This document shows, in pieces, positions 23,643 to 33,059 of a stretch of 38,936 nucleotides of DNA (the first letter of the stretch is position 1; each line of letters starts with the position of its first letter). A program made the position numbers and the translations under genes. This DNA comes from an uncultured Bacteroidales bacterium (GTDB lineage: Bacteria > Bacteroidota > Bacteroidia > Bacteroidales > UBA932). Where the stretch lies: NCBI GenBank assembly GCA_947367375.1, contig CANBDZ010000008.1, positions 1 to 38,936 of the forward strand, written 5' to 3'. The notes beneath the pieces are model-generated. The model was not told the origin of the DNA, ran no database searches, and was given only the letters and a program-made list of their open reading frames with translations.

Positions 23643-26321
23643 ATGAAGAATTTACTTAAACTTTTGGTAGTTACTGCATTGTGCGCATTCGGTTGCGTAT
23701 TTACAGGCTGCCAGGAAAAATTGAAAGGCAACGAGTTCTCCCTTTCAGTCAAAGAGGCAGGTGCAGACTTTATCACGCTTGCAGTTACTGCATCAAAGCC
23801 AATGGAGATCGCTTACAAGGTGACAACAAAGGCTCAGCTTGTGACTCCTGCTGTTCTTTTCAAGACCGGTGAGGTCATCGAAGTTGCAGACGGCGATGTG
23901 ATCGAACTGAGGGAGGGCATCCAGCAGGACACACATTATTATGTCTATGCTGTCGCAAGATTTGACGAGACTACTTATTCTGAGAAGATTTCTCTTGAGG
24001 TCACTACAACCAAGTATGAGTTCAATGAGCTCATCACTATTGTTGAGACTTACCTTGACGGTTACAAGGCTCACATCACTGTACCGCAGGAGACCAAGGA
24101 CAGAAATCACGCTATCCGCGCAGGTTCTATGCCGCTTTCGTGGTACTACCTTATGACCAGCTCAAAAGGTCAGACAACAGTAGACGTACAGGCTATCGCT
24201 TCGAACGGTAACCCATACGAGGGACATATGTTCACAGACTCTACTATCGTCCTGAATGACAAGAATGTGATCCTCCTCGATGAGAAGGGCAACCCTGTAC
24301 TGGATGAGAATAACGAGCAGATCGACATCCACGACCCTATCGTTCCGGGTGAGCCTACTATCCTGATCGCAGGTGAGACTTATTACGGTACTCCTGAGGA
24401 TTTCAATTATGTGGTAGGCTACACAGCTCCTACAAAGGATTCCTGGTCAGTTCCTTACTTCGATCCAGAGAAGAGAGAGTGGCTTGGAGCATTCCAGAAG
24501 AAGGAGTTCTTCACCAAGGAGCCTGCTCTTTGTGACGCAACAGTTGAGATCGACATCCCTGAGGATGAGATCACAGTTACTGACGCAATGATCTATTTCG
24601 AAATGTCGGATGACGCGTACTCGTATTTCTATATCGTACTCGACAATTCTACCTATAACCAGATCCTCTCTACTTACCTCAACGGCAATGAAGACTGGTA
24701 CAGATGGTTCCTCACATCTTACATCGGATTCTATGAGTGGGGTATATTCCCTGAGACAGAGAACATTGCTGTCAATGCTGCAAGCAGCTTCATTGAGCCT
24801 CTTACCGGTGGTGAGACTTACCACGTTCTCGTGACAGTCTTCGGTGATGAGGACGGTGCTACACAGCGTTTCATCCACAAGACATTCAAGGCTAAGGACA
24901 AGACTAAGGTCGCTCCAGTAATCGAGGTGACTGCAATCGAGTCTTCAGATCCTTACACAGCAACATTCAACATCAAGGCAGGTGTAGACTCAAGAGGTAA
25001 CGTTCAGCCGATCATGGGTGCATACTGGGTATGTAACTATGCAAGAGATTTCGAACTTATGTTCAACGCTGACTACACTTATGCAACTCTCCTCAAGAAC
25101 CTCGGATGGACATTCTCTTCAGAGGAGATCGCAGCTGTGAACTCTGCAGAGGGTTACACAGTTTCATTCCCTACACTTGACGGTGAGGTTACACGTTTCG
25201 CTGCATACGGTTGCAACGACGAGTACACCTTCAACGTGATCGACGAGGAGCACAACGCAGGTTGGGCTGACTGCAAGACACCGCTTGCTGAAAACGCAGC
25301 TCCAGTGTCATCGGAGCTCTTCACTCTCCTTGAGGGTGACTGGACAGCGACTGCAACATTGAGAGCTCTCCAGCAGGAGCCAGACGGAACAACTCTTGCT
25401 TACAACGTTGACCACAAGTCAAAGATCAATATCTCTGCAACTGCGCCAGAGCTTCCTGCATCACTTGACGAGAGTGTATATGCCCTCTACGCAGGTACAG
25501 AAGAGAAGCCAGGCAAGTCAAGAGAAGAGGTTGACAATATGTTCGAGGAGCTCAAAGATCTTTCTGACCTCTTTACAGAGGCACGTCTCGTAGGTCAGAA
25601 CAGACTCCTCTGCAGCGGCTTCATGGACTTCGATCCGGCAGCTCCTACTTTGGGTGTGAACAGACTTGAGTTCCGTTCGCCATATGACCTCTTCGTGGCT
25701 ACTGACTACAGCTCTGTAGACGTGTCGCAGCTCATCTATGACTTCGGTCCGAAGTGGTTCCTCCAGGTTCAGGAGGACGGAAGCGTGATCGTGCCGTTCC
25801 ACTCTATGAAGATTCCTCCAATGAGCAACTGGCCAGGTTATGCATTCTACACAGGTGGTGTTGCTGACGGTATGGCATTCTATGATGCAAATGAGGCTTA
25901 TCCAGGATTCCCTGTAGTGATTTCTGATGACTTCAACACAATTAATATCAAGCCTATCGTTCTCAACGACGGAACAAAGGATTACTACTATTATATGAAC
26001 GCAATCGGAGTTTCTCAGCAGGGTGGTCTTGAGATCATTTCTACTGTCATCACTGACATCGTCCTCAAGAGAGGCTGGACAGAGTCAACTCCTGCAAGCT
26101 CAAGCGTAGTATACTCTGCTCCTGTCAACTCAGTGAACGCTGTCGACATGAACGGTTCGTATGTAAACGAGCTTCCAAAGGCTGCTGTCTACAAGTCAAT
26201 GACAGAGTTCAAGCCTGAGCAGCTCCCTACATACACTCTCAAGGAAAAGGCAAATGTGGTAACAAAGGAAATGGTGGATGAAACATCTGCTAAGATCCTC
26301 AGAAAATACAATCTCCAGTAA
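23643..26321 (+). CDS. Large surface lipoprotein with Fn3/Ig-like modules, function unknown
   Basis: Lipobox VFTGC; beta-strand-rich repeats such as YSYFYIVLDNSTYNQILSTYL...LTGGETYHVLVTVFGDEDG. No catalytic motif recognised. Confidence 0.8.
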   Translation: MKNLLKLLVVTALCAFGCVFTGCQEKLKGNEFSLSVKEAGADFITLAVTASKPMEIAYKVTTKAQLVTPAVLFKTGEVIEVADGDVIELREGIQQDTHYYVYAVARFDETTYSEKISLEVTTTKYEFNELITIVETYLDGYKAHITVPQETKDRNHAIRAGSMPLSWYYLMTSSKGQTTVDVQAIASNGNPYEGHMFTDSTIVLNDKNVILLDEKGNPVLDENNEQIDIHDPIVPGEPTILIAGETYYGTPEDFNYVVGYTAPTKDSWSVPYFDPEKREWLGAFQKKEFFTKEPALCDATVEIDIPEDEITVTDAMIYFEMSDDAYSYFYIVLDNSTYNQILSTYLNGNEDWYRWFLTSYIGFYEWGIFPETENIAVNAASSFIEPLTGGETYHVLVTVFGDEDGATQRFIHKTFKAKDKTKVAPVIEVTAIESSDPYTATFNIKAGVDSRGNVQPIMGAYWVCNYARDFELMFNADYTYATLLKNLGWTFSSEEIAAVNSAEGYTVSFPTLDGEVTRFAAYGCNDEYTFNVIDEEHNAGWADCKTPLAENAAPVSSELFTLLEGDWTATATLRALQQEPDGTTLAYNVDHKSKINISATAPELPASLDESVYALYAGTEEKPGKSREEVDNMFEELKDLSDLFTEARLVGQNRLLCSGFMDFDPAAPTLGVNRLEFRSPYDLFVATDYSSVDVSQLIYDFGPKWFLQVQEDGSVIVPFHSMKIPPMSNWPGYAFYTGGVADGMAFYDANEAYPGFPVVISDDFNTINIKPIVLNDGTKDYYYYMNAIGVSQQGGLEIISTVITDIVLKRGWTESTPASSSVVYSAPVNSVNAVDMNGSYVNELPKAAVYKSMTEFKPEQLPTYTLKEKANVVTKEMVDETSAKILRKYNLQ

Positions 26322-31985: not shown

Positions 31986-33059
31986 ATGAAGATATTCAGA
32001 TATATAGCGTCAGCTGTCGCTGCCGTGGCCATATTCGCCTGCTCAGGAACTGTCGACGAGTCGTCACTTCCTGTGCTCGAGGTCAGCGACGCCGAGATCG
32101 ATCTCGCAAGCGAGACCGAGGCGGTGTTCACTGTGACATATAACGGAGCGGATGTGACTGACAAGTCTCAGATAGTTTCGACTGCTGAGGGACTTGCAGG
32201 CAATGTGTTCACACCTTCAGCTGAGGGCTCGGCATCGTTCTATGCCATTTATGAAGGTCTTGAGTCAAACACTGTGACTGTCAATGTGGTCAACACAGAT
32301 GTGAAAGTCGAGTCAAAATATGTAAGGCACGCCCTCATAACTGAGTTCACAGGAGCCTCTTGCGCATTCTGTCCGGAAGGATATGACAATATGATGCTTC
32401 AGCTTTCAAAGCCGGCGATGGCTTCGTATAAAAAGAACGCTCACATCTGCGCCTTCCACTCTGAGGAGATGGGTCAGGATTCGCTTGCTATTGCTGCGAC
32501 TATGGATGTGAAGAACCTTTTCGGCAGCCTGGAGCTTCCTTCATATTCAGTCGATCTTCGTGAAGCCGGTGGACTGAACACTGAGGGTCTTGCTGGATTC
32601 AATGCAGCGCTCAAGGCTTCATTCCAGGAGCACACTCCACACTGCGGAGTAGCCGTTTCATCTTCTTTGACAGAGGACGGAGCTTCTGTGCAGATCGAGG
32701 CTAAGATCACTTCAGAGCTTACATCAGAGTACCGTGTGGTGGTTCTTGTGGTTCAGGACAGAATCGTTGGCTATCAGAAGCATGGCACTTACGGCGAACT
32801 TGATGATTATAAGCATATGCACGTTGTACGCCAGGTGGTGACCAAGTACGCCGGCACATTTACCGGTGAGAAGATGACTGATGACGGTAAGATTGCCGCT
32901 GGTCAGGAGGTTTCAAAGTCATGGACTGTTCCAGTCGATTCGAGATGGGTGCTTGAGAACACGCAGGTTTATGCAATTGCCCTGGACAAGGACGGACACG
33001 TGAACAATATGAACATCTGCGCCATTGACGGCGGAGATTCAGGATATGATCTGAAATAA
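31986..33059 (+). CDS. Omp28-like lipoprotein with CAFC motif
   Basis: MKIFRYIASAVAAVAIFACSGTVDE; RHALITEFTGASCAFCPEGYDNMMLQL; PHCGVAVSSS. ORF start 31974 overlaps the previous gene; ATG 31986 immediately precedes the signal peptide. Confidence 0.85.
   Translation: MKIFRYIASAVAAVAIFACSGTVDESSLPVLEVSDAEIDLASETEAVFTVTYNGADVTDKSQIVSTAEGLAGNVFTPSAEGSASFYAIYEGLESNTVTVNVVNTDVKVESKYVRHALITEFTGASCAFCPEGYDNMMLQLSKPAMASYKKNAHICAFHSEEMGQDSLAIAATMDVKNLFGSLELPSYSVDLREAGGLNTEGLAGFNAALKASFQEHTPHCGVAVSSSLTEDGASVQIEAKITSELTSEYRVVVLVVQDRIVGYQKHGTYGELDDYKHMHVVRQVVTKYAGTFTGEKMTDDGKIAAGQEVSKSWTVPVDSRWVLENTQVYAIALDKDGHVNNMNICAIDGGDSGYDLK

What the first reader, a model, noticed from the sequence alone, without database searches (positions are those of the whole stretch)
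26321..33059. Array of five CXXC thioredoxin/Omp28-type proteins, each with a different active-site dipeptide, around an outer-membrane barrel
Read directly: CSAC (26741-26752), CKPC (27809-27820), CGPC (30169-30180), CTSC (31289-31300), CAFC (32361-32372). Four of the five are lipoproteins; only the CKPC protein has a plain signal peptide. The dipeptide between the cysteines tunes redox potential in thioredoxin-fold proteins, so five different dipeptides suggest divided roles (for example reductase, oxidase, isomerase or client-specific) rather than redundancy. Inference: a multi-component thiol/disulfide system spanning periplasm and outer membrane, with the DUF6029-like barrel (28169-29743) as channel or anchor. 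This is my best candidate for the poorly described system.
Basis: partly seen in the sequence, partly recalled or inferred. Interest (0 to 1): 0.8.

Follow-up and report, generated by a model that had tools for sequence, protein, structure and literature searches.

The report
Outer-membrane barrel with thioredoxin lipoproteins
Bacteria of the phylum Bacteroidota carry a conserved gene set that pairs a large outer-membrane barrel bearing one nearly universal cysteine pair with thioredoxin-like proteins encoded on either side of it, which looks like an undescribed way of handling protein disulfide bonds at the outer membrane and probably on the cell surface.

Summary
In detail: all five CXXC motifs are at the stated bases, in one TlpA-type and four Omp28-type thioredoxin-fold proteins around a DUF6029 barrel. 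The gene set is phylum-wide: in 60 loci from a phylum sample, TlpA lies just upstream of DUF6029 in 49 and Omp28 nearby in 47. DsbD, the usual electron source of such pathways, is a recurrent upstream neighbour (18 of 167 loci). AlphaFold puts it at the tip of the last hairpin of a 24-strand barrel, by topology on the outer side. But three slots in fixed order are real and are fused into one polypeptide in some genomes. Best reading: a reductive thiol module, DsbD to TlpA to Omp28/barrel, acting at the outer membrane and probably the surface. Function is untested; no paper on its function was found.

The parts
23643..26321 (+). large lipoprotein (UP), no Pfam family, conserved upstream member of the cluster
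   Evidence: lipobox at Cys23; homologues upstream of TlpA/DUF6029 in about 22 other loci incl. Bacteroides, 19 loci in the clustered set; no Pfam hit, one fn3 hit in a relative
26321..27472 (+). Omp28-family lipoprotein, CSAC active site 26741-26752
   Evidence: PF11551 67.5 bits, cut-off 34.9; separate orthologous group from the other three
27497..27525 (+). terminator-like hairpin that probably ends the UP-CSAC transcript
   Evidence: 12 pairs then T-rich tail; the scan as a whole is not above shuffled expectation
27647..28135 (+). TlpA/ResA-like periplasmic thiol-disulfide oxidoreductase, CKPC 27809-27820, plain signal peptide
   Evidence: AhpC-TSA 67.4 bits, Redoxin 62.8; PDB 2m72 E 1.4e-44, ResA 4nmu E 1.2e-11; immediately upstream of DUF6029 in 49 of 60 phylum-sampled loci
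28169..29743 (+). DUF6029 outer-membrane beta barrel, 24 strands predicted
   Evidence: PF19494 569 bits; AlphaFold mean pLDDT 91.8, pTM 0.83
29672..29689 (+). C502-S-G-G-V-C507 of the barrel: conserved cysteine pair at the tip of the last hairpin
   Evidence: C-x-x-G-x-C in 165 of 167 distinct DUF6029 sequences; only cysteines of the window protein; hairpin E499-503/E506-510
29743..30834 (+). Omp28-like lipoprotein, slot 1, CGPC 30169-30180
   Evidence: below Pfam cut-offs but orthologous group with conserved place directly after DUF6029
30836..31984 (+). Omp28-family lipoprotein, slot 2, CTSC 31289-31300
   Evidence: PF11551 57.2 bits; slot-2 orthologous group
31974..33059 (+). Omp28-family lipoprotein, slot 3, CAFC 32361-32372
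   Evidence: PF11551 75.8 bits; AlphaFold pLDDT 89.4; CXXC at the start of the first thioredoxin helix, closest fold P. gingivalis HBP35 5y1a E 1.8e-10
33077..35383 (+). large lipoprotein (DN), no Pfam family, conserved downstream member
   Evidence: homologues after the slot-3 gene or the fused gene in most of 19 other loci, 16 loci in the clustered set; no Pfam hit
35441..38623 (+). large protein (DN2) with a signal peptide, less widely conserved possible member
   Evidence: homologues in the same place in a few loci

Best explanation
This is a reductive thiol/disulfide module of the outer membrane. Step 1 (inferred): DsbD in the inner membrane passes electrons from the cytosol to the periplasmic TlpA (CKPC). 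Step 2 (inferred): TlpA hands them to its outer-membrane partners encoded next door, the Omp28 thioredoxin-fold lipoproteins and the DUF6029 barrel. Step 3 (inferred): the Omp28 proteins, most likely displayed on the outside, reduce or reshuffle disulfides of proteins at or beyond the surface; the barrel is their platform and its C-x-x-G-x-C hairpin, on the outer side, is either an exchange partner or a redox-sensed latch. What is shown: the gene set and order, the thioredoxin folds with intact active sites, the near-invariant barrel cysteine pair, DsbD as a recurrent neighbour, fusion of the three Omp28 slots into one chain. What is not shown: direction of electron flow, surface location of these lipoproteins in this organism, contact between the parts, substrate.
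For: Conserved order TlpA, DUF6029, Omp28 in Bacteroidales, Flavobacteriia and more distant members. The only widely recurrent neighbours within 4.5 kb of 167 distinct DUF6029 genes are the thioredoxin-fold group (147 loci), UP (19), DsbD (18, always upstream on the same strand) and DN (16); other families appear in about 11 loci or fewer. DsbD identified by Pfam DsbD_TM plus thioredoxin domains; the window's genome has one DsbD elsewhere and no detectable DsbA, DsbB or VKOR. TlpA resembles the reductive ResA/TlpA/CcmG class. Barrel pair in 165/167 with no other conserved cysteine. Where Omp28 is missing in distant relatives, several have another thioredoxin-like protein (CPHC, CTHC or CPLC) directly downstream. 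Surface: Omp28 proteins beside DUF6029 in Flavobacteriia carry type IX secretion tails (L120, L142 and others); an Omp28-related protein of Paraprevotella clara acts on trypsin at the cell surface (PMC9477747); the closest fold is HBP35, listed as a P. gingivalis outer-membrane protein. Three-slot fusions in L073, L074, L075, L077.
Against: No experiment on any member of this gene set was found. DsbD is adjacent in only a minority of loci. The outward side of the hairpin rests on topology rules, not on a measured structure. The residues after the lipid cysteine (CSGTVDP, CSGTVDE, CGGDGG) only partly resemble the described export signal CS(D/E)2. The 24-strand barrel has no specific structural match. 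The absence of DsbA/DsbB/VKOR is in an assembly that is 85.8% complete.
Confidence: 0.45

Rival explanations
1. Assembly helper: the barrel's cysteine pair is a structural disulfide that staples the last hairpin. TlpA and the Omp28 lipoproteins (which would face the periplasm) form or correct it while the barrel is folded, as DsbA/DsbC do for LptD. The barrel's own job is something else.
For: A tight cross-hairpin disulfide is a plausible staple; TlpA is the closest and most constant neighbour, also where Omp28 is absent; the barrel has one conserved pair only.
Against: Does not explain several Omp28 slots, three-domain fusions or Omp28 proteins with type IX secretion tails next to DUF6029; a disulfide within one tight hairpin should need little isomerisation.
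Confidence: 0.25
2. General periplasmic thiol upkeep: a locally expanded set of thioredoxin-fold lipoproteins, all facing the periplasm, with the barrel a neighbour for reasons of regulation only.
For: Omp28 genes also occur elsewhere in the genome without DUF6029; dipeptides drift as if little constrained.
Against: Phylum-wide linkage to one barrel family and the barrel's own cysteine pair; slot order and fusions are conserved, not random duplication.
Confidence: 0.13
3. Nutrient capture: the barrel is an uptake channel and the Omp28 lipoproteins bind a ligand such as haem, with the CXXC site secondary, as the name of HBP35 (hemin-binding) would suggest.
For: Closest solved fold is HBP35, a hemin-binding protein; the window lies beside a polysaccharide-use locus with two SusC/SusD pairs; DUF6029 is flanked by large lipoproteins.
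Against: CXXC kept in 200 of 201 Omp28 neighbours; no TonB plug domain in the barrel; the polysaccharide locus is not conserved beside DUF6029 in other genomes.
Confidence: 0.07
4. Polysaccharide export: DUF6029 is a Wzi-like barrel that secretes a polymer.
For: PMC9603273 reports HHpred similarity between Wzi-type barrels found near export genes and DUF6029; AlgE is among the fold hits.
Against: No export gene family was recognised among the recurrent neighbours of 167 DUF6029 genes, whereas thioredoxin-fold genes recur in 147.
Confidence: 0.04

Closest known systems
DsbD-TlpA/ScsB-type reductive pathways of the cell envelope
   Same: TlpA-class protein with CKPC, DsbD as genetic neighbour in relatives
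   Different: Known ones (own knowledge) end in the periplasm; here the partners are a barrel and outer-membrane lipoproteins
Etrx1/Etrx2-CcdA-MsrAB2 of Streptococcus pneumoniae (PMC3914529)
   Same: Surface thioredoxin-fold lipoproteins fed by a DsbD-like membrane protein (CcdA) to reduce surface targets
   Different: One-membrane cell; no barrel; no MsrAB-like family was recognised among recurrent neighbours of DUF6029
P. gingivalis HBP35
   Same: Closest solved fold of the Omp28 protein, outer-membrane thioredoxin
   Different: Type IX secreted (own knowledge), not a lipoprotein of this type; sequence match only E 0.01
P. gingivalis Omp28 (PG2173) and PG2174/PG2175
   Same: Omp28 outer-membrane lipoprotein; PG2174 found in vesicles; from memory PG2174 is the DUF6029 barrel and PDB 2m72 is PG2175
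   Different: One Omp28 gene instead of three; the identity of PG2174 and PG2175 was not tested here
Paraprevotella clara 00502 (Omp28-related, PMC9477747)
   Same: Named as an Omp28-related surface protein; promotes trypsin self-degradation

Membership tests
Omp28 (PF11551) | Pfam score above 34.9 bits | tested here: met
   CSAC 67.5, CTSC 57.2, CAFC 75.8 bits; the CGPC protein does not reach it
Omp28 lipoprotein (NCBIfam NF033782) | score above 150 bits | tested here: not met
   27.8, 50.5, 48.8 bits; related but outside this subfamily
Thioredoxin fold | CXXC at the start of helix 1 and a cis-proline | tested here: met
   model of the CAFC protein: strand 120-126, C130/C133, helix 133-144, invariant P189 before strand 190-193
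TlpA/ResA-like oxidoreductase | AhpC-TSA/Redoxin domain with CXXC, exported | tested here: met
   67.4 and 62.8 bits, cut-offs 26 and 26.6; signal peptide; the ResA subfamily cut-off of 170 is not reached (55 bits)
DUF6029 (PF19494) | score above 27 bits | tested here: met
   569 bits
DUF6029 redox submotif (proposed here) | C-x-x-G-x-C near the C-terminus | tested here: met
   CSGGVC; 165/167 distinct sequences
DsbD-dependent reductive pathway | DsbD in the genome and electron transfer to TlpA | tested here: inconclusive
   DsbD present once in the genome, adjacent in 18 relatives; transfer not testable
Oxidative Dsb pathway | DsbA with DsbB or VKOR | tested here: not met
   none found at E 0.001 in the genome (85.8% complete)
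Type IX secretion cargo | C-terminal sorting domain PF18962/TIGR04183 | tested here: not met
   absent from the window's genome; present in Omp28 neighbours of DUF6029 in Flavobacteriia
Surface lipoprotein export signal | two or more acidic residues just after the lipid cysteine | tested here: inconclusive
   two for CAFC (CSGTVDE), one for the others within six residues; over DUF6029-linked Omp28 proteins 83 of 151 have two or more (a regex count)

The most novel reading that the evidence does not exclude
A thiol relay across the outer membrane: reducing power from the cytosol goes through DsbD and TlpA, crosses at the 24-strand barrel whose outward cysteine pair is the exchange site, and reaches surface thioredoxin lipoproteins that break disulfides in outside proteins such as host or dietary proteins and proteases. 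This would also suggest a disulfide-reduction basis for the trypsin self-degradation seen with an Omp28-related protein.
Probability: 0.22. Interest if true: 0.88.

Novelty: new variant of a known kind. Interest (0 to 1): 0.68.

Why it matters
DUF6029 and Omp28 are widespread in Bacteroidota and have no established function. Linking them to TlpA and DsbD through gene order and a nearly universal cysteine pair gives a concrete, testable hypothesis for both. If the Omp28 proteins work outside, this would be thiol chemistry powered by the cell acting beyond the outer membrane, a place generally held to have no reducing supply, and it would bear on how gut bacteria unfold disulfide-rich proteins such as trypsin.

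Tried and rejected
Dipeptide-tuned roles: rejected by within-slot variation. Link of the cluster to the adjoining xylan-type polysaccharide locus: rejected, no SusC/SusD or glycosidase family was seen to recur near DUF6029. Test whether the barrel pair comes and goes with TlpA/Omp28: no contrast available, because C-x-x-G-x-C is never missing from an intact gene in the sample. RecA matches of the barrel profile in PDB look spurious. Fold search of the barrel gave only generic large barrels (FimD, LptD, AlgE, MtrB; TM about 0.5 or less). Co-folding of barrel and partners was not possible with the tools. Literature searches for DUF6029, for Omp28 with TlpA or DsbD, and for Omp28 selenoproteins gave nothing on function.

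Full report
What is in the sequence. The protein at 27647-28135 is a soluble TlpA/ResA-like oxidoreductase. The proteins at 26321, 30836 and 31974 are Omp28 family; the one at 29743 is below Pfam cut-offs but is kin of the one at 30836 and belongs to the same tree. 28169-29743 is DUF6029. Genes 28169 to 33059 overlap or nearly touch, so they are probably one transcript; a hairpin at 27497-27525 probably ends the preceding one (a consensus scan only).

Neighbourhood. In 26 further DUF6029 loci of the same family of organisms, 80 named loci from the genome collection and 60 loci from a phylum sample reaching down to weak members of the family, DUF6029 is mostly preceded by TlpA and accompanied by Omp28. 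Counts: TlpA 100 and Omp28 106 of 112 in the first two sets together, which overlap in part, and 49 and 47 of 60 in the third. Clustering of all neighbours of 167 distinct DUF6029 genes gives the thioredoxin-fold group in 147 loci, then UP (19), DsbD (18) and DN (16); everything else is in about 11 loci or fewer. In some distant flavobacterial-type loci without Omp28 another thioredoxin-like protein with CPHC, CTHC or CPLC takes the downstream place.

The barrel's cysteines. An alignment of 27 relatives showed only two cysteine columns, both invariant, as C-x-G-G-x-C; 110 of 110 in the enlarged set; and 165 of 167 distinct sequences as C-x-x-G-x-C, the exceptions being two ORFs that end early or run off frame. 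The AlphaFold model (pLDDT 91.8) has 24 strands; the cysteines flank the turn of the last hairpin. Connections after even strands are short (median 3 residues) and after odd strands longer (median about 8), reckoned by hand from the strand list, which with the usual rule (N- and C-terminus in the periplasm, long loops outside) puts the last hairpin outside. This is inference; coordinates could not be inspected.

The Omp28 proteins. The CAFC protein is predicted as a short Ig-like N-domain, a canonical thioredoxin domain with CXXC at helix 1 and an invariant proline at the cis-proline position, and a C-terminal beta domain that begins and ends with two more conserved cysteines. Its nearest solved fold is HBP35 of Porphyromonas gingivalis. 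The tree of thioredoxin domains separates three slots, each with about one member per locus in the order seen in the window, across several genera; it is a quick tree, with support for the slots from 86 to 99. In L073, L074, L075 and L077 all three slots are one open frame, in L070 the first two, in L067 the last two. Fusion of separate genes is a classical sign that the products work together. The CSAC protein is a fourth group tied to UP rather than to the core.

Dipeptides. In 121 slot-3 orthologues the cysteines never change and the dipeptide takes nine forms, mostly CAFC above 70% identity and CINC below. Across the slots 8 to 10 dipeptides occur per slot in 17-18 distinct domains, while TlpA is CKPC in 17 of 17. 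So the dipeptide is not the mark of a role; the slot is.

Direction and place. TlpA class and DsbD neighbours point to reduction; the genome has DsbD but no DsbA, DsbB or VKOR that these searches could see, in an 85.8% complete assembly. For place, Omp28 proteins next to DUF6029 in Flavobacteriia bear type IX secretion tails, P. gingivalis Omp28 is an outer-membrane lipoprotein and PG2174 is in vesicles, and an Omp28-related protein of Paraprevotella clara acts on trypsin from the surface (PMC9477747). The window's genome has no type IX tails that the search could see, so lipid anchoring would replace them here. The export signal is only partly met.

Verdict, as my own estimates. A conserved thiol/disulfide gene set with a cysteine-bearing barrel: about 0.9. 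Reductive: 0.7. Working at the surface: 0.6. Barrel pair taking part in exchange: 0.45. Steps of the mechanism beyond the gene set are inference.

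Noticed in passing
3238-23293: Xylan-type polysaccharide locus: arabinofuranosidase, hybrid two-component sensor, GH10 xylanase, two SusC/SusD pairs in tandem and a TIG-domain lipoprotein; not conserved next to DUF6029 elsewhere.
   Followed up: partly
L073, L077, L079, L081: Two DUF6029 genes about 5.7-5.9 kb apart: the first preceded by TlpA, the second followed by the Omp28 slots, as if the cluster were split between two barrels.
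   Followed up: no
L074:2299-5169, L075:4991-7984: Single proteins of about 950-1000 residues holding three Omp28-type thioredoxin domains with different dipeptides.
   Followed up: yes
L061, L062, L063 (other contigs of the window's genome): Four more Omp28 genes without DUF6029 or TlpA nearby; three of them (in L061 and L063) have a second C-x-x-C (CALC, CALC, CTYC) besides the active site.
   Followed up: no
L200, L201, L203-L206: Distant DUF6029 relatives are followed by thioredoxin-like proteins with CPHC, CTHC or CPLC instead of Omp28.
   Followed up: partly
32643-33020 (C224 and C349 of the slot-3 protein): Two further near-invariant cysteines in the C-terminal beta domain of the slot-3 Omp28 protein, possibly a structural disulfide.
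   Followed up: no
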